Positions 26,966 through 64,000 of a DNA stretch of 64,000 bases are shown one piece after another. Each line of letters opens with the position of its first letter. Position 1 is the stretch's first letter. Location: NCBI RefSeq assembly GCF_023856365.1, contig NC_064544.1, forward strand, positions 25,520,399 to 25,584,398. Reading direction: 5' to 3'. This DNA is from Brienomyrus brachyistius. Taxonomy: Eukaryota > Chordata > Actinopteri > Osteoglossiformes > Mormyridae. A program made the translations under genes and the position numbers. The notes below the pieces were generated by a model. That model was not told where the DNA came from, made no database searches, and saw only the letters and a list, made by a program, of their open reading frames with translations.

Positions 26966-26994
26966 GCAAGTCACTGGTGTTGTGTTAGACCATA

Positions 26995-40830: not shown

Positions 40831-40834
40831 TCAT

Positions 40835-41070: not shown

Positions 41071-41578
41071 TATGGGATATATAGGAGAAAACTGTAACAG
41101 GTTATCCAGTGTGTAACATGTCAAATCATATGACCCAGCCTGTTCCTAAAGGGGACTCGAGAGATTCTGAGTTTAAGAGCCAATAAGGCACAGTTTAAGT
41201 CTCTGTAGTGTAAAAATAATGTAACAACAAACAGTTCTATTAACCTGTATGAAGCATATGCAAAATCAATGAACAATGCAAAAATAAGTGTAACTGTCCT
41301 GCACTATGTAGCGTATAATATAGTCATATATACTTAGTCAGTTAATTTTTAATTAGTTACAATTTTGATACAAATTACTATACATTTTAGAAGAAAAATG
41401 TTCTATCTGTAATTTCTCATGTGTCAGTAATGGCTGGCTGCTTTTGCCAGGTTCCATGTATAAAGTAAATAAGGCTGAATTTTACTTAAATATATGTAGT
41501 GCTGATATTAGGAAGAACCATCATTCTTTAGAATTCCACATACTTTTAAGTTTGGTTCTAATTGTGGTTGAGGAATAC
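41071..41578. other. No gene recognised
   Basis: AT-rich. This is where the last exons of the HECT-like gene would be expected on the minus strand, but no C-lobe sequence was found. Confidence 0.5.
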
Positions 41579-44315: not shown

Positions 44316-44593
44316 CTGGGAAAAAATGCACAATACAGTATGTACTCAGTTATCCAGACATAATTAGTCTAATGTCTGTTTCAGCAAAGAGTAGCTGTAA
44401 CTGGTGATTGTGATCTCACACACTACTAAAACAAAAGTTTAAAGAATAATATAGCATTAATAAAATAATGTCATATTAAAGTGAAAAAAGTACTTTTAAA
44501 TCACATAGCTTTCTAAATTTTAACGTCAAGATATAGCAAGTTCGACCCAATGAAAAACATAACTTCTAAATACTAAGAAGTGCAGGGTGCTGA

Positions 44594-45676
44594 CTACTTG
44601 TCATCTACTTAGATTTCCAAAAGGCTTTTGATATTGTCCCCCACAAGAGGCTCCTACTTAAACTCAAAGTGACAGGTATTTTAGGTACGGTAGCGACCTG
44701 GATTGATAACTGGTTAACAGATAGGAAACAGCGAGTAGTTATAAGAGGCACAATGTCACAGTGGGCTTGCGTTCATAGTGGGGTACCGCAGGGTTCGATT
44801 TTAGGACCACTATTGTTCCTAATTTACATAAATGATATGGATACCAATATATACAGTAAACTGGTGAAATTTGCAGATGACACCAAGGTGGGTGGTGTAG
44901 CAGATACTGAATTAGTGGCTCAGCAGCTACAGCGGGATCTTGATTTAATTAGTGACTGGGCCGATACCTGGCAGATGAAATTTAACGTCGATAAATGTAA
45001 GGTACTCCATCTAGGGAGCAGAAATATAAAGTACAGGTATTTCATGGGTGTCACTGAAATAAAGGTAGCTGATCATGAGAAAGACCTTGGTGTGTATGTT
45101 GATGCTTCCATGTCCCATTCTCGCCAGTGTGGGGAAGCAATAAAAAAGGCCAATAGGATGTTGGGGTATATCTCCAGGTGTGTGGAGTTTAAGTCAAGGG
45201 AGGTAATGCTAAGATTATACAATTCCTTGGTGAGACCTCACCTAGAATATTGTGTGCAGGTTTGGTCACCATATCTTAAAAAGGACATTGTGGCCTTAGA
45301 AAAGGTGCAGCGTAGGGCCACAAAAATGATTCCTGGTCTTAGAGGAATGTCATACGAGGAACGGTTACTTGAGCTAAATCTGTTCAGTCTCAAGCAAAGG
45401 AGATTGAGGGGGGACATGATCCTGGTATATAAGATTCTAACAGGTTTGGATGCTGTTCAACCAAATAGTTACTTCAGCATTAGTTTAAATACACGAACTC
45501 GTGGCCATAGGTGGAAATTAGCGGGAGAACATTTCAAGCTGGATTTAAGGAAGCACTTCTTTACGCAGCGTGTAGTCAGAGTATGGAATAGCCTTCCTGA
45601 TAATGTAGTGCAAGCTGAATCCTTGGGTTCCTTTAAATCAGAGCTAGATAAGATTTTAACGACTCTGAGCTATTAG
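44594..45676 (+). CDS. CR1 reverse transcriptase, C-terminal part
   Basis: Open to a TAG at 45674-45676. Blocks in order: VIYLDFQKAFDIVPHKRLLL, SGVPQGSILGPLLFL, the catalytic site KFADDTKVGG, DKCKVLHLGSRN, KDLGVYVDASM, VRPHLEYCVQVWSPY, VQRRATKMIPGLRGMSYEER and FTQRVVRVWNSLP. Missing: the endonuclease and the RT fingers. The fragment has no start codon of its own in context, so a protein is unlikely to be made. Confidence 0.85.
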   Translation, partial: LLVIYLDFQKAFDIVPHKRLLLKLKVTGILGTVATWIDNWLTDRKQRVVIRGTMSQWACVHSGVPQGSILGPLLFLIYINDMDTNIYSKLVKFADDTKVGGVADTELVAQQLQRDLDLISDWADTWQMKFNVDKCKVLHLGSRNIKYRYFMGVTEIKVADHEKDLGVYVDASMSHSRQCGEAIKKANRMLGYISRCVEFKSREVMLRLYNSLVRPHLEYCVQVWSPYLKKDIVALEKVQRRATKMIPGLRGMSYEERLLELNLFSLKQRRLRGDMILVYKILTGLDAVQPNSYFSISLNTRTRGHRWKLAGEHFKLDLRKHFFTQRVVRVWNSLPDNVVQAESLGSFKSELDKILTTLSY

Positions 45677-45741
45677 TTTAGTTCTCCCCAAGCGAGCTTG
45701 ATGGGCCGAATGGCCTCCTCTCGTTTGTATAGTTCTTATGT
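44594..45741 (+). mobile_element. 5'-truncated CR1-clade LINE with intact C-terminal ORF
   Basis: The last about 1.15 kb of a CR1/Rex1-type LINE, ending in the family tail GATGGGCCGAATGGCCTCCT and the 8-bp repeat TTCTTATG (about 2.5 units), a hallmark of CR1 3' ends. 5' truncation is normal for LINE insertion. The frame is uninterrupted, so the copy is young. It lies just upstream of the HECT-like pseudogene. Confidence 0.9.
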
Positions 45742-46688
45742 TCTTATGTTCTAACCATCCTTTTGGTGATGCTGACATCGTCCCTGCACTTCCTCCTCAT
45801 ACCCTCTGCCAGGCGGCAGCAGCCATGGCCCGCAGAATGTTTCTTTTTTCTTTCATCTCCTGCTATATATTTTCCTGATATATATTTGTCTTTTGCAAAG
45901 TGCATCGTGGTATAGGAAACGTACCCCAGAGCAGGACTTCAGACTAAACCATTTTCGGGAAGGGTAGGTGTGCTTGGGGTGAAAAAACTTTACATTAACT
46001 GGTGAGATAGATTAATTTTATCTGTACTTTTTTGAATATGAAGAATTATATTATTTTGGGGGATATCTCCCTATTTTAATGCTGGAGGGAGCCCCTCCCC
46101 CCAAATTTATGCCTGACCCACAAACCCACACACTGTTCACAGATGAGAACAGCGCAGACCCTGCACGGTCATGTTTGGCAACTCCTTCCAATTTTATAGC
46201 CCAAACCAGGAGTAAAAGATGTCGAAAATCAGACCCTTCATAAACTTTTCTATCTTCAATGATACTCCATAATGCTGCTTAAAATGAAGCAATGCACGCA
46301 CAAGTTAAAGCTCTTTTCGTTTTAATGAATGAGGAAAGAAATAGTTTTGGATAAAGAAATGAATTAGTCTTTTTTTTCCATGTGAGCATCCTCCTGCAGC
46401 CTTTAAATATGGAAAAGTGGCTGATGGATGGACTTCTGAGTGAAACTCATTACCCCAAATTTTCTTAAATTGGCTTATATATTTACAACATGGTGACTGC
46501 AACAATAATACACCTACGACTGTGGTGTTCTACCTAGAGCACCACTAGAGGGAGCTCACACATTCTATTGTACTTGCCACAGTAACAACAGTGATGTATA
46601 GGAACAGTTAGAAGCCGGTAATTTATATATAAAAAATGTAATTTCATTAATCTGAATGGGTGGGCCCAGCTGTCAATCCCACCCAGGC
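45742..46688. other. No gene recognised
   Basis: Non-coding; one AT-rich and several mixed stretches. Nothing recognisable. Confidence 0.5.
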
Positions 46689-47090
46689 CTATCCATAGCT
46701 CCGCCTCTGTGTCAGTCCATCTCTTTGCAGTCCAAGTTGTACATCTACCAATCTGGACAGCAAATTTACAACCGTTCTGTTTCGGTGGTTATATTTAAGG
46801 AATGTCACATTAGTAAATTCACGCTTTACATGAACATCTGAAATGGGCAGAGATAAAATCTGCAGTACAGGCAGACCAATGTCTTTAAAACTCCTTTTTC
46901 CTTCAGCACCCTCATACTGCAAAACCTCAATCCAAAGTTCTCCATGTTGTTCATCTCTGTGAAACTGCAACAGGAGAGCTCTCTCCACTGGTTTTCTAAT
47001 TCACCAAGGGAACAGGAAAGGCCCTCTTTTGGTAGGCTGCCTACTGCAGGTAATCTTACCCGGGGATGTAGCATCTCCAGCTTACTCAAG
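46689..47090 (-). pseudogene. hAT-like transposase C-terminal relic
   Basis: Minus-strand frames include LGELENQWRELSCCSFTEMN and, after a shift, IGLPVLQILSLPISDVHVKR followed by NHRNRTVVNLLSRL. This pattern matches the dimerisation region at the end of hAT-like transposases, where a LP-S-x-x-x-E-R-x-F block is usual. It may belong to the same family as the finger relic at 26.8 kb. Confidence 0.5.
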
Positions 47091-48179
47091 TGACTCTGGA
47101 AGTCGCATTTGATACTGTGTCCGGAAGCAGTCCATGCTGCGCTTAGGAATGACGTCTGTTTTAGTGTAGAATTGACTGTAAATTCCTAGCAAAAAAAAAC
47201 TGCCAGAAAAGTATTGCAAAATTGCTGTTAATCACTGTAAAACCCCCAGCTCCATGGGTGTCCCTACAGGTGGCTGCCCTTTGCTGCCAGGCTTGCTGTC
47301 ACCTTCGTCTGTGCCCATGTGTCAAGTAGGGCAAAATGGGGTAGGTGAAAATAGAATTTCCCCAAGGGGAGTAACAAAGTACCTTCATTTCATTTAGAAA
47401 AGAATTCCAAAATGTCTTTTACAGGTTTTGTCGTATGTAAATTACAGCAATTGTCTTTTTTAAACAGAAAAATAACAATTAACTGTAATCTAGTTTAAAA
47501 TGTTATCATGTATTCTATTCAAATTATTGAAGTTACCTGGCAACTGGAATTGGCAAATACTATTGATTCCAATGAAACATTTGAAACCACAAAATCACAT
47601 GAAGAAAACGTACGCTGACCGTTACTGAAATGACCTGGTATCTGTTTCATACCTCACTTTACAACACACAGGACTTTTTTTTAACAATTTAAAGGCACAA
47701 GTTATTTTACGTCATGGCCAAGCCACCTTTGCTAGTTTAATGGCAGAAAAATAGTCAAAGCCAGGCGCCTGGTCCACAAGGGATGTACTCAGTCGCTGCT
47801 GTGTTTATGCTGTAAACATGCTATAAACTAATTTTTTCTAACATTTTCTTTAAGAGCTAGGTGCACTTGCACCTTGGTGGATTGCTATTATATTTGTGTA
47901 TTTGCCAGGTAGAAGAAAATAAGGCTTCTCTACAGAGATACAGAAACAAATATGCTTGTACACAATGTGAAAGCGTTTGAGCAGACCATCTACAACAAGC
48001 AGGATTCCACCAAAGTAGAGGTCTGCATTCCCGTAGAATCCATGGCAATTAAGTGCAGGGCAGGACAAACTTTCATTTTTGAATGCAGGAGCACAAGGGA
48101 AGTGACTGATATGCTCGCAGTAAAAAGAATGAAACAAGTGCTTTTTGTTATCAAACAATTATTTATTTGCATGAGTAAA
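47091..48179. other. No gene recognised
   Basis: AT-rich non-coding sequence, with a short SINE-like tail (CCCAAGGGGAGTAACAAAGT) near 47350-47395. Confidence 0.45.
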
Positions 48180-48400
48180 TAGAAAATTACACAACAAAGT
48201 ATAGCACGATATCACAACATTACATTGTCTCAAAGCGCTTTAGAGCACCTCCACCCAAAGCCCCCAGTGAGTAAGCCATAGGCGACAGTGGCAAGGAAAA
48301 ACTCCCTAGAAGGAAGAAACCTTGGGAGGCACCAGACTCAAAGGGGAAGCCCAAACCTCCAGGGGCCGGCAGGGAGAGTGAAAAACACACACATCAGATA
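48180..48400 (-). mobile_element. L2 3'-end fragment
   Basis: On the minus strand this matches the L2 3' untranslated end at 37.3-37.5 kb: CAAGGTTTCTTCCTTCTAGG, GAGTTTTTCCTTGCCACTGT and AAAGCGCTTTGAGACAATGT. Confidence 0.85.
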
Positions 48401-48435
48401 ACTGCAACAGGTATTCTTCTACATATCCTATACAT

Positions 48436-48628
48436 ATGCATGGTACAGTGGTTAGCACTGTTGCCTCACACCTCTGGGAACATTTATCCATTTTCTAAAA
48501 CCGCTTCTCCTGTTCAGGGATGTGGGGATCAATTTGCCTTTTGGAACAGGCGGTCAGATGGATCCCAGAGGCTACAGGCACGAGGCAGGGAACAACCCAG
48601 GATGGGACACCAACCCATCACAGGGCAG
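48436..48628. mobile_element. Rearranged SINE
   Basis: A SINE head on the + strand (GGTACAGTGGTTAGCACTGT) is joined to the end of the same family on the minus strand (TTTATCCATTTTCTAAAACC ... AGGCAGGGAACAACCCAGGA). Confidence 0.7.
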
Positions 48629-48631
48629 GCT

Positions 48632-48663
<32 letters not shown>

Positions 48664-49078
48664 AAAACTCACCATTCATTCACACACCATTCATAAACAC
48701 CATTCACACACCAGTCACTCACACAGCATTCACTCACACACACACACCATTCATAAACACCATTCACACAGCATTCACTCACACACACCATTCATAAACA
48801 CCAGACACACACCAGTCACTCACACACCATTCACTCCCCATTCACACACACATAGACCACTCACACACACCATTCACTCACACACGCCATTACCACTCAC
48901 ACTCACTCACACATGCCATTACCTCACACACACCATTCACACACCTGTCACTCACACACACCATTCACTCACACGCCATTACCTCACACACACCATTCAA
49001 TCACCATTCTCATACACACACACACACACACACACACCACTTACACACACCATTCACACCCATCATTACCAAACACAC
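48629..49078. repeat. CA-rich microsatellite/minisatellite
   Basis: ACAC runs alternating with CATTCACACACC-type words for about 450 bp. It starts directly at the stop codon of the minus-strand gene that follows. Confidence 0.95.
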
Positions 49079-50547
49079 TCACATACCATTGACATATACC
49101 ACATTCCCATTTGATGTGGACACCTTCACACTGCCTGCTTCTAGATTATTTATGTTCAGGTGTTCCACTAATAATTTGTCCACTTTAGTTCCAGCAATTT
49201 CCCAATTAAGAGCATTCAGCTGGAATTCACTGTCTACAACCTCTATCTCCACATCCATAATTTCCAATTCAAATTCTGAATTAAAACCCCTCTCTGCAGT
49301 CTCCTCCAATTTGACCTCTCCAATTTGTATTTCGACAATTTCAAATTTATCATTTACACCATCTAGCTCAAACTGGCAGAGGTCGACCACTATGGCTCCT
49401 ATTTTCAGCCTGTCTTGGTGGTCATCTGCAGGCTTTATGGAGACTGTCCTTTCATTTAACAGAAAAACCTCTAACCCATGCATGTCTAACCCCTTATCCC
49501 TCCCAGGCTGGTTGATGGGTGGAGTTGCTGGGGAGCACTCTCCTTCTTCACCCCAGCAGATGATCTCATCCCACTTGTCCCAGGCTGCCCAATACACATC
49601 ATCCGTCCAGCTAACTGCCTTGGCAATTGGCTTTCGGGTGTGTGACACGATGGAACGGTCAGCCTGGTCAGAGGGTGATTCTGCTGGGGAGCACAGCTCT
49701 TCCTCATCTTCCCAGTCAATCACTTCCATCCACTTGTCCCAAGTTGCCCAGTATCGATCGTTGCTCCAGCTGACAGCTTTTGCAATTCGTTTGTTTCTGA
49801 ATGAGGAAAAACACACAGGCAATACAATAGAGCTGTCAGTCACTCCTGGCACATGGAATTCAGTTCTGCACTGACACCTTCGCAATAAACAACTGCATTA
49901 TAGCATAGGAAACTAGTTAACTTTCACATACAATTTACATATAATCAAGAAAGAAGCCTGGAACAATTTTAAATTTTACTAAATGGCAATATACTGATTT
50001 TAGTCACCAAACAAACTTTTCAGGTCTTGCTTCACTACTTTTATCTGTGTTTGTTGCAATACATCTGCCCTCTCCTGGTCTGCTGGAATATCATTGCTGT
50101 AGGCAGCACCGAGCGCAACCACCCGCATCCTCTTCCGAATGCAACATGAAAGCGCGGGAAAGCGCACGTGCAAAAGTGAAATATCATCTAGACTTTGCGG
50201 CACAGGAAACTAGCCGACTTGCACATAAAATTTAAATATAACCAACACAGTAGCCCGCAACAATATTCACTTTATTTAAAAGCAATGAACTAATTTACTC
50301 ACAAGCAAGCGCAATTATTTACTTAAGCGCAGTAAAGCGCACGCGGAAAAGCGAAATATCAACTACACTTTGCGCATAAAATTTAAATATAATTAACATT
50401 GTACCCCGGAACAAAATCACTTTATTTAAAAGCAATATACTGACTTTACTCACCAAACATATTTTAATATACATGCAAATTTGACAGATACTAAATAAGA
50501 AAAATTATCCGATAAAATGGGAGCAGAAAAGCAACGTACCTCGTCAT
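49079..50547 (-). CDS. Unrecognised two-exon gene
   Basis: Exon 1 contributes ATG ACG AG (50547-50540) before a GTACGT donor. Exon 2 starts at 49796 after a good pyrimidine tract and TTCAG and stays in frame to a TGA at 49079; total 241 residues. I do not recognise it. Residues about 1-85 hold two related units: AKAVSWSNDRYWATWDKWME then an acidic EDEEELCSPA, and AKAVSWTDDVYWAAWDKWDE then EEGECSPA. Residues about 120-225 are a run of alternating hydrophobic/acidic strands (FEIVEIQIGEVKLEE, FELEIMDVEIEVVDSEFQL). It ends EHLNINNLEAGSVKVSTS plus a short tail. No signal peptide or membrane span. A CACGTG box lies at about 50600 upstream. The last few codons run into the CA repeat, so the C-terminus may be truncated relative to the 39.5-kb fragment. 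Splice prediction is by eye. Confidence 0.55.
49880..50480. repeat. Diverged tandem units in the intron of the unrecognised gene
   Basis: Three units of about 150-190 bp share words such as CATAAAATTTAAATATAA, ACTTTATTTAAAAGCAAT and ACTCACCAAACA. On the minus strand, two units have a GTGAGTAAA donor-like site and the third has GTGACTAAA. One unit has an open stretch (about 50126-50000) reading MRVVALGAAYSNDIPADQER. Confidence 0.6.
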
Positions 50548-51664
50548 CTTGGTGCAGAAAACAAGTGAAGCTGCGTCTTTCAAACCGGCAGCGTCCCACG
50601 TGCCGAAGAGTCAAATGTAATCAAGCAACACGGCCCACACAATTAAATAATAACATCATAATAATTATAGCTCTTGTATAATTATTCTATATATTATTCT
50701 ATAATTAGAGGAACAGACTTTTATAAGTTAACTTGTTCACCGAGAATAGTATACAACACCGTAAGCATATAACCCTTAAAGGATGATTAATTAAAATTCG
50801 CACATTCATCCTGCATAACATAAAACAATGACTTAAAGAGACTTAATATGAAATGAACGCTACTGTCCGAGGGCATTTATCTCCACAAATCGCTATGTAA
50901 CATAATGTCTTAAATACTCTGATTTTCAGAATGACAGAATCTTAACATTTAAAACTTTGTTTTGCGATACCGATACGTAGTGATATTGGTATGTGGAACA
51001 ACGTTATGTTACACACGCCTCCCACAATTCAAGAAGCTGTAGTTAGATTAAGAGCGTATTCACAATTTACCCGTTTGCCTTTTACCGTGACTGAGCACGA
51101 TCCCCCACCCCAGCTGGTCTGCATTCCCCACATTGCAATTAACGATCCTGGCCTCAGCGCTTTTGTTACCGTGGGACTTTGTTATGTTGAAGAAAACATT
51201 AGAAGGGAACTTCTGTCGCACAACTGAATGAAATTTATGATTAATGCATGGCAGCATTCTCCAAGTACAGTGGGACGGACTCCCCAACGGACCGAGAGTG
51301 CTTGTGATGTAAAATACACTAAGATAATTCAGTTCCTTTAAAGAGCGGTTCTTTTAATACTCTGTATTATAATTTTCGTGTGCTGTCCCCTTAAAAAGCA
51401 TATCACCAGTATTCCTTATTCAAATTGTCCCATTTAAAACTACAATCCCCAAACGTCAAATTGCATGCTTCTGCATGTCACCTACACTTCAGACTTCATC
51501 CTCAAAATCAAAGCAGTATTAACACAAGCGACATGTGCCATCACTTAAAGCCAATGTAACTTTTTTAAAATAAAGTCTGTTTCAACTGGATTTTTACCTA
51601 AGTAAAACAACCATTTTATGTTCTATTTATCTTAAAACTACTGAAACAAATAATTGGCTACAAT
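50548..51664. other. Upstream region of the unrecognised gene; no other gene
   Basis: Contains the presumed 5' untranslated region and a CACGTG site near 50600. A 78-codon open frame on the + strand (50991-51227, MWNNVMLHTPPTIQEAVVRL) has no recognisable feature and is listed only for completeness. Confidence 0.4.
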
Positions 51665-51832
51665 GCAGTTCCGCTGTTTTGTTTGGCACCGTAAATTATG
51701 TCCTGCATTCTGTGGAAAAAAATGAAGGCTGAGGAATGTTACGTAACACAGTTAAAATGCAAAAGTTCTCTCTGGTGTAATTCACTGCATAAAACCATGG
51801 TCTTAAGTGTGGTGTCTTCTTCATAACACTCC
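51665..51832 (+). repeat. Dispersed 169-bp repeat, copy 2
   Basis: Same as 3111-3279 with about ten differences. The flanking sequences differ from those at copy 1, so this is a small dispersed repeat or the only shared remnant of a larger one. Confidence 0.9.
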
Positions 51833-52289
51833 CTGACTTTTGTATCCGTGACCATGAGATAGGGTGGGCTGCTTTTCTTCCTTCATTTTACTAGTGTTCC
51901 TCCCTTTCCCCCCAGCCTTGGCTGGTGGTTCAGGCAGCATCACCTTCTTTTAATGGACCCAGGTGTCATTTATTTTGAAGTGCAGAAAATGTTCTAGCAG
52001 AGGTCTTAGACAATTTCTGAATTACACAGAACTCTGACTTCTTCTGAAGCTGTGAGAAATTGTTCATCTGTAATTGTTGCATTGATATTTGTTGATGTGC
52101 GTGTGCCCTCCTTGAGCAGTAAAGGGGAGATCACATGCAGAGCTGATTTTCTGTAGTTTCTTAGTCTAAATAAAAATAAAATATTCTCTTCATATAGTCT
52201 GGAAGAGCCAATTAGTTATTTCTAGAAAAATAAATAGAGCCAATGAAGGAACCAGATGTCACAGTAACACAGGTCACTGTCTGTGGTGC
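51833..52289. other. No gene recognised
   Basis: Non-coding; nothing recognisable. Confidence 0.5.
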
Positions 52290-52796
52290 TGGGTGTTGGG
52301 CTGGCGCTGAAGAAATAGGATAACTGGCCAAAGTGTCCGTGTGCCTCCACTGATTACAGGACATTAGTTAACAGTAATTAGCAATCACTTATAGTTCTCA
52401 TTTATAATGATGTAAAATTATAAATATATATATATATCCATCCATCCATTTTCCAAACTGCTTATCCTACTGGGTCGCGGGGGTTCCTGAGCCTATCCCA
52501 GTTCCCAATGGGCACGAGGCAGGGAACAACCTAGGATGGGGGGCCAGCCCATCGCAGGTCACACTCACATACCATTCACTCTCACATGCACACCTATGGG
52601 CAATTTAGTAACTCCAATTAGCCTCAGCATGTTTTTGATTGTGGGGGTACACCGGAGTACCCGGAGGAAACCCCACGAGGACACGGGGAGAACATGCAAA
52701 CTCCACACACATGTAATCCAGGCAGAGACTCGAACCTGGGTCCCAGAGGTGTGAGGCAACAGTGTTAACCACTGCACCACCATATATATATATATG

Positions 52797-52838
<42 letters not shown>

Positions 52839-53130
52839 GGACAAAATATAATCGTGATTTAATGTATCCCTTCTGCTCTTAAAAAAGCGCAATATGTCTG
52901 AATGACGAATATGTCTATTACGTTTTAATAATCTTGTTAATATTTGTTTACCTTTTTTTCTGTAATCACTCTATGTTAAAGCAATTTTTAAATCTAGCTG
53001 TGAAATTGATGATGCTGTTGTTATTCTGACTGTCTGAACATAAGTGAGGGGATGGATGCACTATTCTATGGAGGCCTCTGAAGAGAATAAATTATCCCAA
53101 TATTATATTGGGAGAGATGATTAAATCAGA
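52290..53130 (+). repeat. Block shared with 37.7-38.1 kb, split by a SINE
   Basis: 52290-52420 and about 52970-53130 match consecutive parts of 37690-38100. A SINE and TA microsatellites sit in the gap, so the SINE inserted after the two blocks separated. Confidence 0.75.
52436..52783 (-). mobile_element. Full-length tRNA-derived SINE
   Basis: About 348 bp. On the minus strand: head GGTGGTGCAGTGGTTAACAC with an A-box-like start and a B-box-like GGTTCGAGTCTCTG, body, and end GGATAAGCAGTTTGGAAAAT with GGATGGATGG. Flanked by TA microsatellites (52420-52435, 52784-52835). Confidence 0.9.
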
Positions 53131-53235
53131 GCTAGATAAGATTTTAACAACTCTGAGCTATTAGTTAAGTTCTTCCCAAATGAGTTTGATGGGCCGAAAG
53201 GCCTCCTCTAATTTGTAAATTTCTTATGTTCTAAG
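53131..53235 (+). mobile_element. CR1 3'-tail fragment
   Basis: Matches the last 100 bp of the CR1 at 45.6-45.7 kb: GAGCTAGATAAGATTTTAAC, GATGGGCCGAAAGGCCTCCT and TTCTTATGTTCT. Confidence 0.9.
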
Positions 53236-53704
53236 ACATACAGTACTGTGTGAAAGTCTTAGGCAGTCCAAAGAAATGTTTAAAGCTGTTTATCTGGGTA
53301 GCAAGTGTACTTTGACTTAGAATAAATGACACAATTTAACATTAGAACATGTGCAAATTAAGAGTAACACAATAAAAACTAGTAATAACTTCTTCTGTTT
53401 TCTAAAGCGTTACTGATATCTAGTTGGATGGCTAGATGAACACCGCTTCAGTTCCCAAACTTCTCCCCAGCGGCACCTCAGCCGTTCCATGATTTTGTTA
53501 AATTTCACCAACAGCTCAATTAAATAATTAATTATACTGGTTTAAAAAGTCAGTGACAGATTGACTAGCTGTACTGTATGAGGTGTGCTAGTGGCCAAGT
53601 CAAAAAATACATGGCTGCACTGGATGGTCGTTACAAATACTAGGATGATTTTAGCAGAGGTTCTGAAATGGCTAAGCTGACACACTTTGACAGGCATAAT
53701 GTAG

Positions 53705-53905
53705 CTGAAGTTCAGCCTGTAGCTGAAGACCCTGCCCCACTGCAGAAGTTCAAGGGAATTCTGCTTTTCCTTCTCCATCACTTCCTGGATGGCCTCTTTC
53801 GAAGACCTCTTCATGCACACCCTAGCCAGATGCACTGAGAGGCTTGGCTGTGTCTTCTTGCACACGGGGCAGAGCAGGAAATGCCTGCTCGAAGCACTGG
53901 GGATA
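53705..53905 (-). pseudogene. Zinc-finger-like protein fragment of unknown origin
   Basis: Minus-strand open stretch with LLCPVCKKTQPSLSVHLARV and CMKRSSKEAIQEVMEKEKQN: a C-x2-C ... H-x4-C finger followed by a helix. It sits inside the MITE. I cannot name the family; a transposon-carried exon fragment is possible. Confidence 0.4.
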
Positions 53906-54060
53906 AAATAAAATTAAAAAAAGTCATAAATAAAGATTAGATTTGATTCATTACTTTTAGTTGAATAAAGAAACAGTCCAGTCATCATCAACACTGTTCG
54001 TTTCACAGTGGTTTGGATAAATAACATTTGCATATCCTGATGGCTCCTAGACTGAGTAAA

Positions 54061-54294
54061 GTACATAATCACAGCTATTGAAACATGTTAACTAATTACT
54101 TACATTTATATTAAAATAAAATTTAATTAATTAAATTAAACTTAAGCTGCTTCAAAATATTATTTTAGGTTTGTAATGTACATAATCATAGCTATTGAAA
54201 CATGTTGACTAATTACTTACATTTATATTAAAATAAAATTTAATTAATTAAATTAAACTTAAGTTGCTTCAAAATATTGTTTTAGTTTTGTAAT
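54061..54294. repeat. 117-bp direct tandem duplication
   Basis: Two copies (54061-54177, 54178-54294) starting GTACATAATC, differing at a handful of bases. Confidence 0.95.
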
Positions 54295-54402
54295 GGATGC
54301 AATTTAAGTTTTAACAATAGCAGTCAGTGGTCAGAGACTTTTGCACAGTGTCAGTAAAGTAGAACAAGTTTATCCACAATTTCTACAGATTCTAATGAAA
54401 TG
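54205..54402. repeat. Inverted duplicate, copy 1
   Basis: Reverse complement of 58485-58670. Includes the end of the MITE and about 50 bp beyond it, so it is not the MITE alone that was copied. Confidence 0.9.
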
Positions 54403-54625
54403 AACAGTCCATTATTGGGATGGCTGAGGTCCTTCACGATCTTCTTGGCCTTGGTCCAGCACCGCCTGCTGTAGATTGAGTGCAGGTCAGGGAGCTCGGT
54501 GCAGATGGTGCGCTCAGCTGATCGCACAACCCTCTGTAGAGCTCGTCTGTCCTGCATGGTGCTGTTCCCGAACCAGGTTTCCTCCCAGAGTACGTGCAGA
54601 TCAGTTGCATTGGGGAGTCCATACT
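54403..54625 (-). pseudogene. LINE C-terminal relic
   Basis: Minus-strand frames give DRRALQRVVRSAERTICTEL and WTKAKKIVKDLSHPNNGLF. This is the C-terminal block that follows the RT in several fish LINE families. No RT is adjacent. Confidence 0.6.
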
Positions 54626-55253
54626 GTGATGCTGAGTGAGTGTAGTAGGAGTTTGAGAGATGAAACTCCTGATGATTTACTCCCTCGGCTAACTAACCAG
54701 AACAGGATCATACCAATACCAAAATTATAAGTTTATAAATGTTTTTCACTACCCTGATTCATTCAGTTATTTCTGTTTGTTAATTCCACCCCCCAAGCAA
54801 ATACATAAACAAACAAACAAACAAATATTGAGGGGGGATGTGTCAGAGGTGATAGAATCAGTGGATGAATCTAAAAAAAAAAGTCATGATTTTTTTCTCT
54901 CCAAAACATAATGCACAAAAGTTAGGTAAGACATTGACATGTTATGACAGTAGCATGATGCAGAGGAACAAACAGAAGGAAATATCAAACTAAACCTGAG
55001 TCAACTAGGACTAATTACACTAAATTAAGTGGAACACACAAAATACCTAAAACCACTTAATAAACAAACAACAAATATTGCATTAGATAAACTATACTGA
55101 TGCCTGAGAGAAGTTGTTGTGCAAGCTGCAGCAAGTACGTAAGGCACAGGTGCAGAGACACTACATATAGTGCAAACTAATTTAAAAGTATACAGTACAC
55201 ACAATGATTCCTGAAAAATCAAAATACCGTGGAATACTAATGAAATACTTATC

Positions 55254-55288
<35 letters not shown>

Positions 55289-55928
55289 AGAAATAATAAA
55301 GAATTAGTTTAAGGTATTATGCAATTGACATGTACAATTAAAAAAGAAATTGCACCAGACATTTCCTGTGGCAAAGAAGGGTTGCTTTGTGGCATGTCGC
55401 CGACAGGATGTCATGGGCAGGAGGGTAGGCAGGCAGGGCAGCACAGGCAGAAGGGCTGGCGGGCAGCCAGAACTGTTTTGCCACTGCAGTTTGTTTTACA
55501 GTTTCATCTGCATTTGTTTCCCCAAGGTATAACAGCAGCTAATTTATGAACATGCTGCTTTTCAGAAAAGAAGTTTAATTTCCAGGAGCATGACCAGTGC
55601 ACACATTTAGTGTTGACGGTTCTTTGTAAAATGGATGTCCTGTACTTTTATTGATCTGTCCGTCCGTCCATCCATCCATCCATCCATCCATTTTCTAACT
55701 ACTTCTGATGAAGTTCCGGGTTATGGCGAATTGAACGTCTGACTCCGGTCAGCTGAGCAAAGTTGGTAACCTTGGTATTGTGTGTAGGAGATTCGGTATA
55801 ACTATAATTTCGTTCTCCATTTACATGCCGGAAGTGTCTTTAAGTGTTATGTAGTTTTGCCTGAAACGCAAAAATAAAAGAAAGCAATTAGAGCTAACCA
55901 GTTGCTGCTGTAGTGATTGAAGAACTTT
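54626..55928. other. No gene recognised
   Basis: AT-rich non-coding with a GAT microsatellite (55256-55289) and a short SINE end with CATC repeats (55660-55695). Confidence 0.5.
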
Positions 55929-56013
55929 TGTCGGAAGTTGGATTCGAACCCACGCCTTACTTCGGAAGGCTGTTTACGTTGAGTCGGGCGAATGAGACCA
56001 CTCGGCCATGGGG
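55929..56013 (-). tRNA. tRNA-Leu-like sequence, probably a pseudogene
   Basis: On the minus strand it has ATGGCCGAGTGGTCTCATTC (D-arm and A-box), GACTCAACG in the anticodon position (CAA), an extended variable region and GTGGGTTCGAATCCAACTTC (B-box, T-arm). The 3' acceptor strand TTCCGACA is not complemented by the 5' side, so an intact acceptor stem is not formed. It could be a decayed tRNA gene or a tRNA-derived SINE head. Confidence 0.45.
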
Positions 56014-56390
56014 CAGTTTCCAGTTAAGGCTGGCTCGCTGCGAAGAGTGGGTGAGTCCTAGTGTGCGTTAGAGCGGGGTAGCGATTTCAGTCAGAAATTT
56101 CAGGGTAATAGCGGCGAAAAAAATGGATCATATTGCCAATGTTGCTCAGAATCGCAGTAGCCTTCCGATGGTATGCGGTGCGTTGCGGTAGATTACTGTG
56201 ACAAGAAAGCAAACTTTCATTATTACCATTCTGTTTATATTAAATTACGATCTTCCATATTAATCAAGGGATTGTAAAACTGAGAATATTTCAGCTCCAG
56301 TAGTTTATATTAAAGTTGCCCGAGTCACAACATGGTCTTTAAATGGCAAAGACAGACATAAATCAAATGTATATGAGCAGCAACATAACT
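56014..56390. other. No gene recognised
   Basis: Non-coding sequence between the tRNA-like element and a SINE end. Confidence 0.45.
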
Positions 56391-56452
56391 TAGCATCCGG
56401 ACCCCCCGCGACCCAATAGGATAAGCGGTTTGGAAAATGGATGGATGGATGG
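56391..56452 (+). mobile_element. SINE 3' end
   Basis: CCGCGACCCAATAGGATAAG followed by CGGTTTGGAAAATGGATGG and the GGATG repeat: the end of the family seen complete at 52.4 kb. Confidence 0.9.
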
Positions 56453-57600
56453 AAATGTGATGTGGTGGCGAAGTCGTGCAGAAGTTTTACAACTGCACTA
56501 TCGATTTATCACTTTATTTAGAAATATAAATTCAGTTCTTATCATTTTTAAAAGTTACTTTCTTTCACATTTGAATTTCAAGGTGTCCCTCACAGTGACA
56601 CTGAAGGGCGGGGCTACGGGGGGCGGAGGTGGGGGACGCGGTCAGAATGGTATGACACTTTGGCTCCTCAAATTTCACCATCCTATGATTCTGCTGCGCG
56701 TCCTCGTGACCCAATTTTAATAGTTTTATTAATATATTTTTTTTAAATTTGCGAATACAAAAAATGTCGTCTTTACTGCAAAAAGTCATCCCTTATGTGT
56801 AATGTAATGCTTTTTTTTTACCACTAGATGTCGACATAGACCGTGGAAAGCCGGTCAAAGTAAGTGCGACACTTAGCGGCAATTACAATATTTATTGTTA
56901 AATCAATGTAAAAAAAAATTAAATGTAATGACTTGTACTTTTTTATGAATTTGGATCTCTTTAGAGCAAACATATTCAAATGGTTTGCTTTTATAACGCT
57001 CCAAGTAACTGCGCAAGCCCCTCAAAGTGCTTTATGCCTCTCGCTTCCCATTCATTTCAATGGGCTTTCCCGACATTTGGGTAATTGTTTATTCCAAAGC
57101 CTCGAAAACACTCTGAACTGCAATTTGTCATGCAAAATGCATAATTTGTTGTATAAAATATGCTGACTTCTAAAAAACAATTTATTAAAAGAAAATAAAA
57201 AGGGCATGCCATTATATATTTGGTTGCTTTTTGCCACCGTTTGACCGTTTTCTGCTCAGTAACTGTGCCTGGTCCTTCCCTGCTGTAAAGCTATTTTTAG
57301 TACCTCTTGCTAGCTCACCGTTTGGTCACTGACAAAAGATAAAAGAAGCCGACCACCCAGACAGGCAGGCGCCCAGAGTAATTACTGCCATAAAGCTATC
57401 ACGTGTACGGGGAATGCAAAGAACGAAACTAAATGGATACAAACACCCCAGCCCATTTCAAAACAAAAACATTTCGCTGCTATTTTGCAACATTCTGGAT
57501 ATTTCAGAGCACAATGTTTACCTTCTATGTAAAGAGCTAAATCCCAGATGAAAAGCAAAGTCGCAAAATATTCCTGCATGAGCGCCGAAACCCCCTCCCC
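56453..57600. other. No gene recognised
   Basis: Mostly AT-rich. A GGGCGGGGCTACGGGGGG block near 56605 is GC-rich, but no promoter or exon could be assigned. Confidence 0.45.
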
Positions 57601-57910
57601 CGTTGTTCCCCCCAGTTCAGGAGTGGACGCTTCTGCTCAGAAGCTGCAAGGCTTTTGGCACAGCGTTTGGGGAAGCTCAGGGAAAGCAGCAGTCGAGCCC
57701 AGAGGACCCCCCCGCGGGAGTGAATGCGTCTTTTCCGGTGCTACATTGCTTTTGCACGGTGAGAGCGTTTGGAAAGGCCCAGCTCGGCGAAAGCGGCAGC
57801 CGATCTCTTTACGGACCCGCCCCCGCTGGAGTGAGAGAGTCTTCCACGGTGCTGCAAGGGTTTTGCACGGTGCTAGCGTTTGGAGAGGCCCAGCTCGGCG
57901 AAATACTAGG
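57601..57910. repeat. GC-rich tandem repeat, units of about 100 bp
   Basis: About two and a half units share TTTTGCACGGTG, GCGTTTGGA and GGCCCAGCTCGGCGAAA. One frame stays open and contains AFG words, but a protein is not supported. A GTAAGT follows at 57910. Confidence 0.7.
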
Positions 57911-58484
57911 TAAGTTGAATCCTAGGTCCTTAGGACTCTGAGCGTATTCACAGTGGGCTGTCTTTTCGGAGCCTGCTTTTTATTACAAGTTTAGCTGTTT
58001 ATTACTAGCTATCATTCTTTCATACCTTTAGCCCCATCCCTTCTGCATTGCCATAGCGCTTTGGTTTCATATCTGATTAGTATTTAGTTGTTTTTTTTCT
58101 TCATGGTAGTTGAATGCAGGCTCCGCTCCTAATCCCATTAAATTTGAATACTGGGTCATTAGGACCCAAAGAGAATCACGGGCGCCATTTTGATGACGTA
58201 AACTTTTTTTTTTTTCACCATTTTGGTATCCTGCCGTCCTGAGATATGCCCCGAAACACACAAAGTCAGCGCGCTGCAACTGAATCCCAACATGTTTAAA
58301 AAAAATGCTTCTAAACCGCAAATTAAACTGGGTGACGAGGACCCTGTAAGGTGCCAAAGGAGAGGAGACCTGCACATGTAAAGTCACTCTACCTCTGCTT
58401 CCAGCGAGACAAGAGCTCCAGATTCTGTTGAAGATTTCATCTTTTGTTGAACAACTTCTCAAGAATGGCTTCCAAGTTGTAAGT
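57911..58484. other. No gene recognised
   Basis: Non-coding. 58320-58350 (CTGGGTGACGAGGACCC) is a loose inverted match to 56690-56720. Confidence 0.4.
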
Positions 58485-58670
58485 TATGATCAATTTATTA
58501 TTTCATTTGAATCTGTAGAAATTGTGGATAAACTTGTTCTACTTTACTGACACTGTGCAAAAGTCTCTGACCACTGACTGCTATTGTTAAAACTTAAATT
58601 GCATCAATTACAAAACTAAAACAATATTTTGAAGCAACTTAAGTTTAATTTAATTAATTAAATTAATTAA
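58485..58670. repeat. Inverted duplicate, copy 2
   Basis: Reverse complement of 54205-54402, few differences. Its right edge meets the composite duplicated block at 58670/58671. Confidence 0.9.
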
Positions 58671-60446
58671 AGGCGATTGGCTCAGCTGAGCAGTGCATCA
58701 GACAAGCCTCCAACATCCAGTCTCTGTTGAACAGGGTTGTGAAAGCAGATGTAGGTTTTCAGGATATATTTAATCTTTGTGATCACATTGCTGAAACTCA
58801 AGATGGCATTGGCAACCATCGCTTCAATTTAATTTCACTTGTCTTGCTTTCACAAGTTGAGAGAAGACCATGTGGCAAAAGTACATACTCTCCAACTACA
58901 GACCAGCAGTTTGAGGAAGAAACTGTGTAAAATAGTACTCTTATAAGGATACTAAATACTAGACACAGAGCCTCTGTCTTCCCACCCCCACGTCACAGGA
59001 AAGACACAGCTTCTGTACTGACACCAGTATATATTGCAGTTCATTGGCTATAGTTCTTGACAAATATATACAAGATGCCTGTGTGTATAGACCTGCCCTG
59101 TCTATAGTTATTTTTCCAAAAAGGAGGTAACTGGATGTTCATCTTTCATATTACCGTAAATGTAAAAAAAATAATAAAGTATTTTCCTTGTCTGGAAAAT
59201 GTATTGTGTACAGTTCATTGACTATAGTTCTCTACAAGTCTATACAAATGCCCGTTGCTTTGGATAAAGGCGTCTGCTAAATGCTTAAATGCAGTAACGG
59301 TCCTAGCTGATGAGGCGCCCTAGGCGAGCATCAGCGCCGGCACCCCCCCCCCCCCCCCCAGGTGTAGGGAAACTATAGCGGAACTAATGTTGCGTTTGGG
59401 TTTAGGTCTGGTCAGTTTTGCTGGTAACATTTTCGTTTTGCTCAGTTATAAGTGCAGCATTTGTTATGCGGCTGAGAAAGTGTTTTAAGTTATAACGTCA
59501 ATATTCATGGATATTGGAGTTATTGTATGAGCTGCAGTCATAAGTTAATGGCGTGAGCAAGCTGTAGCCTATTTAGGTTTGTGTTTGGTTATTTTTAGGA
59601 AAATGCCTGTGTTTTTACTGATTCATTTTTTGATGTATGTGCTTTATTTTATCTAGTTCTCACGGCATGCTCGACCGGATAGATATGTGAATAAATGCCC
59701 GTGATCAGAGATCAACTTGTGTTCGTTATTGAGGGAGGTTACAAGGGGGGGCGGCTCATAGGAAAGTTACGTATCATCATCATCATCATCATCATTATTA
59801 TTATTATTACTTAATAGGCTTTGCTAAGCAGGTAAATTCATGTGGGCTTGTTCTTTTCATATTAAGACGCATTAATACCAACTAGCTTTAAGAATAGTGG
59901 AATGTTACACTTTTTTCTTCCTCCGTTTGTGGCACCCCCTGGATGAATGGCGCCCTTAGCATTTGCCTATATTGCCAATGCCACGGGCCGGCCTGCATAA
60001 ATGCATGAGTGGTAACGCAATGGGGCTTATCATGGAGATTACCAGGGTCTTTCAGCTAACATTGCTGGCCTTTTTTGTTGTGTTTTGTATTTGCATTGTT
60101 CTGCATGTAGTAGGAGAGTAGTGTATGTTTATTTCGAATGGAAGAATGAAAAAATACCTATATGTGCATTACATTTTGAACATAAAAGTAGGCTGTGTTA
60201 AGAAAACCCGCTTCTCTGTCGATTTACTCGTGGCTCGGTCGTAAATACATGTCTGACATTTATAATGAACCAAGACAATAAAAATCGCTTCTCAAATTTG
60301 CCCATTTATGGTTCTTTATTTCTGAATGCCAGCTTGTCCCTGATAGACGTTCATTCATTTAAAAGGAGCTCTACCCCGTCCCAAGATGGCGGCTCTGTTG
60401 ACGCATTCGCTCCCATAGACGGCTGTATTCAACGCGACAACCAGTG
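58671..60446 (+). repeat. Composite duplicated block, copy B
   Basis: 1776 bp matching 27205-28978. Starts inside the P-element relic (GATTGGCTCAGCTGAGCAG) and ends CCAGTG, 16 bp before the first MCM3AP-like exon. The long open frame starting at 60265 is a by-product: it begins in this repeat and runs into that exon in the wrong frame. Confidence 0.95.
59298..59994. mobile_element. Non-autonomous hAT-like element, copy B
   Basis: Same element and same position within the block as 27826-28530, with a slightly different C-run. Confidence 0.5.
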
Positions 60447-60462
60447 CTGCTGCCTTCTGCAG

Positions 60463-63400
60463 GTTGGCGAAGATGCGAAGGGAAACCGAGCATCAGATGA
60501 AGGTCCACTTGTTCTACCAGCAGCTCCTGAGGTATGGTGCTACTGTAGAGTAGCTGTTAGCCATCCATCACTCTCCATGTGCTCATCTACATCTCCATCC
60601 ACTTCAGCGAATCTGTGTGGGGGCCACTGGACCTGCTCAGTCTGGTGGCAGCAAGCGTCTCGAACCCATCTGACACAATCTTCTGGAAGGCAGCCCTCTT
60701 GTTGCCAAGTGATCATGAAAGAGATGCCAGTGTTGCTAACCAGTAAGTGGGGGAACTGGGTGTCGTTCGGGGAGGGATTGGGTGTTAGTTGGGTTTAGAG
60801 GTCCTGGAGCTTACATTTGTGCCCCCCTCCCATCTCTGATGCAGGATTTTGACAGAATGGCTGGAGTCCAAATTCGGTAACTCGGAGAAGCAAGAACACA
60901 GGGAGATGGTCCCCAACGGACACATGCAAACCTTGAGCATCAGCAGCGGCCTGCGGAGCGTGGGGGAGCGCATGCACACAGTGCACATGTGTGTGAAGGT
61001 GTGGCAGATAGGGGGGAACTTGCCGATGAATATCGACAGGCTTCATGCCCCTGTGTTGCATGTTCTGTCATTAATGTTAGTCTAGCATAGCTTAACATAG
61101 CCTAGCATAGTCTGGCACTATGTGATATTAGCAGGTCCTGTGGTAACACAGATGTTTGCGAAGGGTGCAAGTGCAGGAAGTGAGGCCATGTTTCTCACTG
61201 TGGGTCAGGTGGCCCGCGGGCCCCTCAGCGAGGAAGGCCAGTTGGCATTGGAGAAGCGGAAGGGGCTGATGGGCATGGGCGCCCTGCTGATGCTGCTGCC
61301 CTCGGCAGTCAGTCCCGGGGCTGATGAGGAAGACGGGGACATCTTCCTGTTATCCGCCCTGCTGCAACTCCGGCAGATCCAGCAGGCTAATGCCTGGCCA
61401 CAGGCCCTTCCTCTAGTGGTGGTGGTCCCAGGGCAGGCTGGGCACAGGGCCAGCGATGAACGGCTAGAGGAAGGTGTGACACTAACCGTGTCTATGACAA
61501 CAGGTGTCGCGTGGGATTCGCTTACTTTACTTATAGCATTTCTCTTGAGGCTATGTTTACGTATGCAGAGCTAATACAGTTGGTTTGTTCCTCCTGTCTG
61601 ACCATCGGTTTCCTTTCCCTGTAAGACCTGATGCTTCAGACACTCATTGAGGAAGGTTTGATTTCAGAGTACATGTTCGTCCATATCCCCGAGACCACGA
61701 ACGAACCCCAAGGATCCGAGCAGGTGAGTGTGCATGTTGTCGCTGGCCTCGGTAAGATTGAACCATCCCATTGACCATCACCCCCCAGGCTGTCTGTGCT
61801 GTCCAGGCTGTCTGTGCTGTCCCGCAGATCCGCCATGCCGTCAGGTGGCTCGCTGCCCGCTCCACGGCACCAGCCCGGCTCGTCTCGCAGACGTTGGTGC
61901 AGGTTGTGTAGGCCGGGCTCTGCCGCGAGTTTGCTGGTAGGCTTCACCGTGATCGGAGGGACCGTGACATGGCGGGACTGCCCTCCCAGGGCCCTGCACC
62001 CGTCATCGGCCTCTACAACACTGTCCTGGCTTTCTTGGCTGGCCTTGTGTCGTCCCCGAGTCTGGCTGGCCTCTCCTGGCCCGTGGCAGAGTTCTCGGTG
62101 CCAGGGGGTGGTGACTGCCTACCACATCTGCTCTGGAACTCGGCTGAGCACCTGGAGTGGCTCCAGGGGGCAGTCCTGAGCCTGCGGCTGCCCGACTGGC
62201 CGCTGCCAGCCGTGGGGGGTATGTCCATGCCTCAGATTCGGAATTCGGATTTCTTGCTAAGTGGCTGCTTCTTAGTCTGTTTCCTTAAATTTCTGCTGCT
62301 GCCACCGCTCCCCCCACCCAGCTCCTTGGAGCCAGCTGGTTGCCTCCATCTTCCAGTACGTATCTCAAATCCCATGGTCCCGCCACAGCCAGCCACTCCT
62401 TATGTCCCAGTTGGAGAACCTTTTGGAGAGGCTGCGTCAGGACTGTGTGGGCCGAGGTGGGGGGCCGGACAAGGAGCCCACTTTCTGGGAGGTGCCCTGG
62501 GACGAAATTGTCATGCTCTGTGTAGAGCACCAACTCCGGGACTGGAACCCTCCTGGGTGCCCCGTGAGTGAAGGTGAGGGGGGTGGGGTGGGTCTGACGT
62601 TTGGGGGGGCCTACTGGGGATGCCATGCAGGTGTGAACCTATCCCACCATCTTCAGATGTCATCAGTGACGACGGAGAAATCTCGGTGTATTTCCTGAGC
62701 GATGGGCTGCAGGGCTTCATACCGCCGTCCTGCTGGGTGGATGCCGTAAAGCAGACGCACAGGGACAAGCAGCAGGGGAAGGCAGGGTAAGAGCCAGCCA
62801 GCCATGTAAATCTAACACATTCCAGATAGACTGTTAACAGTGACCTGCAGATTTAATGAATATTATTTACTATTAAATGGAAGAAGAGGGAAAGCCATCA
62901 GCTTCCAGTCTTGCTCATATCCCCAAGAGTGGTGTACAATACTGGCTTCTTATCCAAAGTCTCTGCCATTGCAGGTGTCACCAGAGCATGTGGCCTCATC
63001 CTCGACTGGCCAGGCCACGTCTTCAACAGAAGCTGTTTCACAGCATGGTTGAGGACCCTGAGTCCGGATCCGGTGTTGCCCCTGTTTTGGATGCTGCCTC
63101 CAGCCCCCAGGACCTCCTGGCTCGCATTGAGGAGGAGAAAGAACAGAGCCGCAGGTCTGACAGAGAACAGACATGCTACACACGTGTACTCTCTCATGTG
63201 AGTTGTGGCATAAACATTGAGCCATTTCCTGTTTGACTTGGATCTGCAGGTTCGAGGACCAGCTGCGTACCTGGCTTGACGTCGAGTCCCTGGGCCCTTC
63301 CTCTTCCTCCTCACCACTTTTCTTGCCTTCTTCGTTACTGTCTGTACCGGAGATCGTAGTGCCCTCCCCAAAGATGGCTGCCCCACCTGCACTTGCCCTG

Positions 63401-63540
63401 GTATTGACCCTGTGCCTACACAGTTGCTCACATTTTAAGACCCCAAGTACCCTGTGCTCATCAGTTGAGACTGTTTCTGTGCCCATTTTTGTAGCAGAAG
63501 GAGCGCAGTGTCCGCAGTGACCAGGCCAGGGGAGCTGCCA
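60463..63540 (+). pseudogene. mcm3ap: MCM3AP (GANP) C-terminal partial copy
   Basis: Eleven exon pieces with consensus splice sites and consistent phases: 60463-60531, 60608-60742, 60845-60998, 61209-61473, 61626-61723, 61828-62218, 62322-62573, 62657-62786, 62975-63154, 63250-63400 and the start of a last one at 63495. Signature blocks: HQMKVHLFYQQLL, LTEWLESKFGNSE, DIFLLSALLQLRQIQQA, LHRDRRDRD, LLWNSAEHLEWLQGAVL, VPWDEIVMLCVEHQLRDW and RRFEDQLRTWL. Together they cover about the last 470 residues, the acetyltransferase-like region of GANP, a nuclear mRNA-export (TREX-2) scaffold. Exon six has an in-frame TAG at 61909-61911 where a Glu is expected, all upstream exons are absent, and the final exon is cut short. 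So this is a partial, apparently dead copy despite good overall conservation. Confidence 0.9.
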
Positions 63541-63669
63541 GTTTGTATATTTCCGCAGATGTGACACAGGCGCGGATATAATTTCCCAGGCCGAAGGACG
63601 CCGAAATCTACCGCGCTGTAAGAACTCTGTTTCGACTTTTGAAGGCCGTATTTTTGGGCTTTTTACACA
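63541..63669 (+). promoter_or_regulatory. Presumed 5' flank and 5' UTR of MCM3AP
   Basis: About 130 bp between the end of the C-terminal copy and the ATG. Contains ATATAATTTCCC near 63577-63588 and moderate CpG. Its left boundary is the duplication breakpoint, so the promoter is either very short or extends into the pseudogene. Confidence 0.4.
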
Positions 63670-64000
63670 ATGAATCCGTCTGGGCTTTTCGGCAGAACAC
63701 AAGGCGGAGCGTTTCAGTCTCCGCGCGCCCCGACCTCGGGGCTCTTTTCCTTCGGCCAGCAGAACGCCCCTTTCGTGCAGCCGCCTGCCCTCGGCCAGGG
63801 CACCGGCCAGACCTCGCTCTTCAGTACATCGTCTGCCTTCGGCCAGACCGGATCCCTTTTCGGGCAGCCTGGCGGGACGGCGTCTGGACAGGCCCCGACC
63901 TTCGGCATGCCCGGTTCTGGGAGTCAGACCCCGTCGTTTGTACAGAGCGACACCAGGTTCGGCCCGCCGCCCTCCTTCGGGCAGCCGGCCGGGGTCGGTC
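63670..64000 (+). CDS. mcm3ap: MCM3AP (GANP) 5' coding exon, partial
   Basis: ATG at 63670, open to the window edge (110 codons). The start is MNPSGLFGRTQGG, followed by nucleoporin-like FG repeats: LFSFGQQ, SAFGQTGSLFGQPGG, PTFGMPG, TRFGPPPSFGQPAG. FG-rich N-termini occur in GANP and in nucleoporins. Identification as GANP rests on the MNP start and the neighbouring GANP C-terminal exons, so a nucleoporin is the alternative. GANP acts at the nuclear pore in mRNA export and binds the replication factor MCM3 through its C-terminus. The rest of the gene lies beyond the window. No stop or frameshift is seen in this part. Confidence 0.75.
   Translation, partial: MNPSGLFGRTQGGAFQSPRAPTSGLFSFGQQNAPFVQPPALGQGTGQTSLFSTSSAFGQTGSLFGQPGGTASGQAPTFGMPGSGSQTPSFVQSDTRFGPPPSFGQPAGVG

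What the first reader, a model, noticed from the sequence alone, without database searches (positions are those of the whole stretch)
60463..64000. C-terminal MCM3AP pseudogene abutting the 5' end of another MCM3AP copy
Ten complete exons of the C-terminal third precede, by about 130 bp, an ATG exon that looks like the N-terminus of the same gene. That is the footprint of a partial tandem duplication in which the upstream copy kept only its 3' part. Splice sites and frame are preserved, but a Glu codon is TAG at 61909 and the last exon is truncated, so loss of function seems recent. The fragment could still act as the promoter region or be transcribed into the intact gene.
Basis: partly seen in the sequence, partly recalled or inferred. 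Interest (0 to 1): 0.75.

Follow-up and report, generated by a model that had tools for sequence, protein, structure and literature searches.

The report
Runaway pseudogene array of export gene
A broken stub of the mRNA-export gene MCM3AP at the end of this fish sequence is the edge of a repeat that carries dozens of near-identical, usually frame-broken copies of the gene on many chromosomes, while one intact gene remains at its original place.

Summary
Window 60447-63543 holds exons 18-27 of MCM3AP (GANP) and part of exon 28, joined at 63543/63544 to the 5' end of another copy (ATG 63670). The genome is that of the weakly electric fish Brienomyrus brachyistius. The same junction occurs 77 times, every hit exact, on 23 contigs. 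Each opens a unit of about 10.03 kb: the gene minus its last 35-36 codons. The native gene end occurs 51 times besides the parent's. Arrays hold 0-7 units; 21 of 28 intervals between arrays, less the units, are 50-75 kb: a gene-bearing macrosatellite. One intact 2024-codon parent sits on contig C1, head-to-head with ybey; its two ends explain the junction by a CAGTT microhomology. All six complete units read are interrupted; of 23 distinct copies readable at one exon-1 insertion, 22 are out of frame. TAG 61909 is private to the window copy among 15 compared. Best reading: a recent pseudogene macrosatellite. Bolder: its open 343-codon frame resembles the GANP FG fragment reported to block mRNA export when overexpressed (PMC2869303, summary and passages).

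The parts
60447..63543 (+). 5'-truncated MCM3AP (GANP) copy: exons 18-27 complete plus the start of exon 28; equals unit positions 6964-10030
   Evidence: blastn to the full unit 99.5%; spliced alignment; Pfam PF16769
61909..61911 (+). in-frame TAG, private to this copy
   Evidence: GAG in the other 14 of 15 distinct C-terminal copies aligned
61786..61820 (+). private 30-bp intron expansion in this copy (contains an 18-bp tandem repeat)
   Evidence: alignment of C-terminal copies; the repeat finder D3
63539..63544 (+). tandem junction GCCAGTT|TGTATATT; CAGTT is shared by both parental ends
   Evidence: 77 exact copies genome-wide; parental 5' and 3' ends read
63544..64000 (+). start of the next 10,030-bp unit (to 73573 on the contig); 126 bp of 5' flank, then the ATG at 63670
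58668..60446 (.). 1.78-kb repeated segment forming the left edge of the arrays read
   Evidence: about 95% copies at 27202-28978 and past the window; same edge at 8 of 8 distinct left-edge fragments read
17973..58667 (.). spacer of the higher-order repeat, holding retrotransposon pieces; duplicated 68-75 kb downstream at 98.0-99.5%, with gaps
   Evidence: self-comparison; Pfam RVT_1 etc.; interval statistics

Best explanation
The region is the left edge of one array of a young gene-bearing macrosatellite in Brienomyrus brachyistius. Shown: a tandem duplication of MCM3AP joined a point in the last coding exon to a point 126 bp before the ATG, at a CAGTT microhomology; that junction is identical in all 77 places found; arrays have 0-7 units, the same truncated left edge in the eight read, and the native gene end on the right; most recur with a spacer of about 60 kb; the parent at the ybey locus on C1 is intact. 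Inferred: the founder already carried, or soon gained, the frameshifting exon-1 insertion, so it made no full-length GANP; unequal exchange changed unit numbers; exchange between similar heterochromatic regions of different chromosomes carried the block around. The copies persist as passengers rather than as working GANP genes.
For: 77 junctions, all 0 mismatches, 0 in control. 79 gene 5' ends = those 77, the C1 parent and C50:437370. 52 native 3' ends = 51 and the parent. Parent: 2024 codons, no stop or frameshift; 99.6% to a unit over 7329 bp and 98.9% over the first 1590; YbeY next door. None of six complete units is open throughout: first stop after 343 codons in five, 371 in one. Of 23 distinct copies readable at the insertion, 18 carry 13 bp, 3 carry 14, 1 carries 17 (all out of frame), 1 carries 15 (in frame, stop at codon 371). 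N+stop:S polymorphism 18:8, not different from the site share (P = 0.49). Intervals less units: 21 of 28 within 50-75 kb, those averaging 60.1 kb. One orientation within every contig.
Against: Coding SNV density is somewhat below noncoding (26/5976 vs 29/4055, P = 0.07), so weak constraint is not excluded. The frame downstream of the insertion is intact in 4 of 6 units, and NCBI names such products 'germinal-center associated nuclear protein-like'. The insertion holds a G run, where assemblies can err, though 18 of 23 agree in length. 7 of 20 units sampled could not be read there. Seven of 28 array intervals do not fit a 50-75-kb spacer. No read depth, RNA or second individual was available.
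Confidence: 0.85

Rival explanations
1. The arrays are functional: frameshifted units express a 343-codon N-terminal FG fragment, and/or a C-terminal product from an internal Met, that interferes with mRNA export and was amplified by drive or dosage selection.
For: The first frame is open in 12 of 12 copies read (10 at 343 codons, one each at 371 and 401). SNV density there is low (3/1015 vs 29/3052 in the C-terminal stretch, P = 0.04; six-unit test P = 0.04). Overexpressed human GANP(1-313) retains NXF1 and poly(A)+ RNA in nuclei (PMC2869303, summary and passages).
Against: The tests are post hoc, weak and uncorrected; of 15 differences fixed from the parent four lie in this stretch, two nonsynonymous; only 126 bp of 5' flank is kept; no expression data.
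Confidence: 0.07
2. Assembly artefact: haplotigs or mis-expanded repeats inflate one local duplication.
For: Arrays often lie near contig ends (13 of 23 contigs are over 0.9 Mb with an array under 0.5 Mb from an end) and several contigs are small, so some may be alternative haplotypes.
Against: The six units read differ by 3-36 substitutions per pair; arrays lie inside chromosome-sized contigs; the C12 and C3 spacers differ by a 7.8-kb insertion.
Confidence: 0.05
3. One reading: one partial duplication next to one intact gene.
For: The anatomy at 60447-64000 fits.
Against: 77 junctions on 23 contigs; the downstream copy is broken; the intact gene is on C1.
Confidence: 0.02

Closest known systems
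Mouse R2d2 (Cwc22-containing copy-number gain, chromosome 2; PMC4334553, abstract and passages seen)
   Same: Segment with one RNA-splicing gene, single copy at one site, more than 30 copies at a second site on the same chromosome
   Different: Here on 23 contigs, 10-kb units nested in larger repeats, frameshifted units; transmission distortion shown for R2d2, untested here
Human macrosatellites RS447 and D4Z4 (PMC3599962, abstract seen; their gene content is recalled)
   Same: Large tandem units in variable number
   Different: Unit here is a 28-exon gene nearly end to end; many more locations
Drosophila Segregation Distorter, truncated RanGAP (recalled)
   Same: Truncated duplicate of a nuclear-transport gene; analogy only
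   Different: Single duplicate, proven drive; no such evidence here

Membership tests
MCM3AP/GANP gene family | SAC3/GANP, CID and MCM3AP domains | tested here: met
   PF03399, PF16766 and PF16769 on P0002, an NCBI product on the contig of C12's length; PF16769 on window stretches
Functional MCM3AP gene | Uninterrupted frame from first ATG to native stop | tested here: not met
   0 of 6 complete units; 22 of 23 copies out of frame at the exon-1 insertion; met by the C1 parent
Macrosatellite / long-range tandem repeat | Kilobase-scale head-to-tail units in variable number | tested here: met
   about 10.03-kb units, 0-7 per array
Macrosatellite / long-range tandem repeat | Copy number varies between individuals | not testable with these tools
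   one assembly only
Meiotic drive responder (R2d2-like) | Transmission above one half in heterozygotes | not testable with these tools
   no crosses or population data
Pericentromeric repeat | Adjacent to centromeric satellite | tested here: inconclusive
   13 of 13 near-end arrays on contigs over 0.9 Mb point to the contig end; 3 of 11 array-side ends read (C8, C46, C50) carry a tandem repeat of about 220 bp also found past the second C12 array; centromere not located

The most novel reading that the evidence does not exclude
A selfish or conflict-driven macrosatellite: dozens of frameshifted MCM3AP units whose first open frame is a 343-codon FG fragment like the GANP piece that blocks mRNA export when overexpressed, amplified very recently across many chromosomes, with the intact parent alone supplying GANP.
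Probability: 0.07. Interest if true: 0.92.

Novelty: new variant of a known kind. Interest (0 to 1): 0.63.

Why it matters
A nearly complete 28-exon gene that mammalian cells need for mRNA export (PMC2869303, summary) has become the unit of a macrosatellite on many contigs, with the parental locus, the founding junction and its microhomology still visible and low divergence suggesting a recent spread. That makes the birth and interchromosomal spread of a gene-bearing satellite directly testable. NCBI names such copies GANP-like proteins in this species (one 90% cluster of 55 member sequences), so gene-family and expression studies in electric fishes could be misled. If the FG-fragment frame is expressed, it is a candidate for conflict over mRNA export.

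Tried and rejected
Functional full-length genes: rejected for the six units read by frameshifts and stops. An early reading of the exon-1 G run as a 61-bp intron was dropped when the Paramormyrops protein and the parent showed coding sequence there. Circular-DNA origin: not favoured, because the arrays read end in native 3' flank. tRNA genes: none in the window, L010, L017 or L019 (ARAGORN, bacterial code); no Rfam match in window, L009, L010. Subtelomeric location: no telomere array in the 11 array-side ends read; of 19 ends read only the C3 left end has one. Literature: four searches (open-licence library only) listed no title or abstract start that describes this array, and PMC10029256 has no hit for germinal, GANP, MCM3AP or Brienomyrus in its main text; that is no proof of absence from print. 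Left-edge count: not completed.

Full report
What is there. Window 60447-63543 is a 5'-truncated MCM3AP (GANP) copy: exons 18-27 complete and the first part of exon 28, with Pfam support. At 63543/63544 it is followed by the 5' end of another copy, ATG at 63670. Along the contig (L009-L018) that second copy runs to a native stop after 73680, and a further fragment-plus-copy array lies 69.7 kb downstream.

Whose genome. The best protein matches include NCBI 'germinal-center associated nuclear protein-like' records of Brienomyrus brachyistius, one on a contig of 27,905,563 bp, the length of C12. That record stands for a 90% cluster of 55 member sequences. The best full-length match is the Paramormyrops kingsleyae protein (P0001).

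Scale. A 30-base pattern across the junction, allowing 3 mismatches, hits 77 places, all with 0 mismatches, on 23 contigs, and 0 in the reversed control. A pattern from the gene's 5' flank hits 79 places: those 77, C1:55243321 (minus) and C50:437370. A pattern from the native last exon hits 52 places, one of them C1:55231945. Earlier searches are lower bounds: 62 of 892 candidates scored, 40 of 133. Twelve of the 23 contigs are 19-57 Mb long.

Parent. The odd 5' end on C1 belongs to an intact gene: 28 exons, 2024 codons, no stop or frameshift, 1890 of 2024 residues identical to P. kingsleyae. On the other strand upstream lies an ORF with a YbeY domain, 546 bp between the two ATGs. Head-to-head MCM3AP-YBEY order is as I recall it in human. 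The parent carries a 1.37-kb piece in intron 1 that the six units lack; 1154 bp of it has 98.9-99.0% copies at 44599-45752 and 112718-113871 of the C12 stretch, and it reads like a reverse transcriptase by eye. Parental ends: 5' GACAGTT|TGTATATT, 3' GCCAGTT|CAATGG; junction GCCAGTT|TGTATATT: one duplication at a CAGTT microhomology. The native ends of the arrays read GCCAGTT|CTATGG in C12 array 2 and C3, GCTAGTT|CTATGG in C12 array 1.

Array anatomy. Chaining the 77 junctions to the 51 native ends at 9.3-10.5-kb steps gives arrays of 1 unit (29), 0 (11), 4 (5), 3 (3), and 2, 6 or 7 (one each); four junctions stay unassigned. All gene ends on a contig point the same way (the C1 parent, on the other strand, was left out). 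Successive native ends, less the units, lie within 50-75 kb in 21 of 28 intervals; those 21 average 60.1 kb (s.d. 4.9, over this chosen range). The other seven are 23.9, 30.9, 82.5, 194, 198, 303 and 1749 kb. The left edge, at unit position 6964 beside the 1.78-kb segment, is the same in 8 of 8 distinct left-edge fragments read, on 7 contigs; L005 is an internal copy. The genome-wide left-edge count did not complete. Downstream the C12 array follows the parent to about 74790, where a 781-bp tandem repeat starts.

Are the copies genes? The six complete units differ from one another by 3-36 substitutions. Relative to the parent all six carry an exon-1 insertion. In 23 distinct copies it is 13 bp (18), 14 bp (3), 17 bp (1) or 15 bp (1), so 22 are out of frame; the 15-bp copy, C12u2, has a stop at codon 371. 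Dropped before counting as duplicates: L001 (= C12u1), L008 (= C3u1) and the C22 and C27 pieces (= L002, L007). Seven of the 20 pieces do not show the site, probably through deletions upstream in those units. Further damage: TGA at 71877 in C12u1; a stop and a frameshift in C3u3; the frame after the insertion is intact in 4 of 6, leaving aside the codon-371 stop of C12u2, which lies before the Met where NCBI starts its product. TAG 61909 is in 1 of 15 distinct C-terminal copies. Polymorphism in the six units: 15 nonsynonymous, 3 stops, 8 synonymous, 29 noncoding; N+stop:S does not differ from the site share (P = 0.49); coding against noncoding density P = 0.07. Fixed differences from the parent: 9 N, 2 S, 4 noncoding. 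This fits pseudogenes with little or no constraint. Low divergence suggests a recent burst; I give no date, because the rate is unknown to me and gene conversion may homogenise.

Location. On contigs over 0.9 Mb with an array under 0.5 Mb from an end, 13 of 13 point to that end (two-sided P = 0.0002 if independent; cut-offs chosen after looking). Of the other ten contigs, 4 point to the nearest end and 6 away. Of 11 array-side ends read, C8, C46 and C50 carry a tandem repeat of about 220 bp that also follows the second C12 array, C26 matches DNA just beyond it, C22 matches the spacer (window 54591-55232), and six (C1, C6, C12, C21, C27, C33) match nothing in the C12 stretch over 100 bp. The C3 left end is telomeric. 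The published karyotype, from a single specimen, is mostly acrocentric, 2n = 48 (PMC7449985, passages). A pericentromeric setting is a guess, not shown.

The bold reading. The insertion leaves an open frame of 343 codons holding the FG region (371 and 401 codons in two copies), open in 12 of 12 copies read. Summary and passages of PMC2869303 report that overexpressed human GANP(1-313) retains NXF1 and poly(A)+ RNA in the nucleus. SNV density in this frame is low: 3/1015 against 29/3052 in the C-terminal stretch of 12 copies (P = 0.04), and 1 against 54 elsewhere in six units (P = 0.04; one variable base inside the insertion was counted with the rest). Four of 15 fixed changes fall in it (P = 0.06), two nonsynonymous. 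These tests were chosen after seeing the data. Without expression data this stays a hypothesis.

Comparison. It works like other gene-bearing macrosatellites and, in layout, like mouse R2d2: a single copy at one site plus a multi-copy expansion of a segment with one RNA-splicing gene (PMC4334553, abstract and passages). It is not shown to be a drive element.

Noticed in passing
window 3254-8828 (+): Retrovirus-like element: reverse transcriptase (RVT_1), integrase (rve, MLVIN_C) and further open frames; described only.
   Followed up: no
window 23395-24456 (-) and 33742-36821 (+): Non-LTR retrotransposon fragments (RVT_1, endonuclease domains on the stretches scanned) inside the spacer.
   Followed up: no
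L010, window-continued 74790-80548: 781-bp tandem repeat (about 7 copies) directly after the parental 3' flank in the array; related copies on C3.
   Followed up: partly
window-continued 150973-153222 (L017) and ends of C8, C46, C50: Tandem repeat of about 220 bp at which three array-bearing contigs end.
   Followed up: partly
G000:C21 20199940-20210399 and C167 282171-283340: MCM3AP copies that match the profile in shorter, more broken stretches than the other rows; possibly decayed units.
   Followed up: no
G000:C50:437370: One gene 5' end without the common junction, besides the parent.
   Followed up: no
L031, L032, L034, L037, L038, L042, L050: Units in which the exon-1 site is shifted, as if DNA upstream in the unit were deleted; some junctions are also spaced about 9.7 kb.
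   Followed up: no
window 60380-60420: AAGATGGCGGC motif just left of the array edge, resembling a YY1-type promoter element (motif recalled).
   Followed up: no
L053 and L066: The last 800 bases of contig C21 are a 29-bp tandem repeat; those of C22 a 17-bp one.
   Followed up: no
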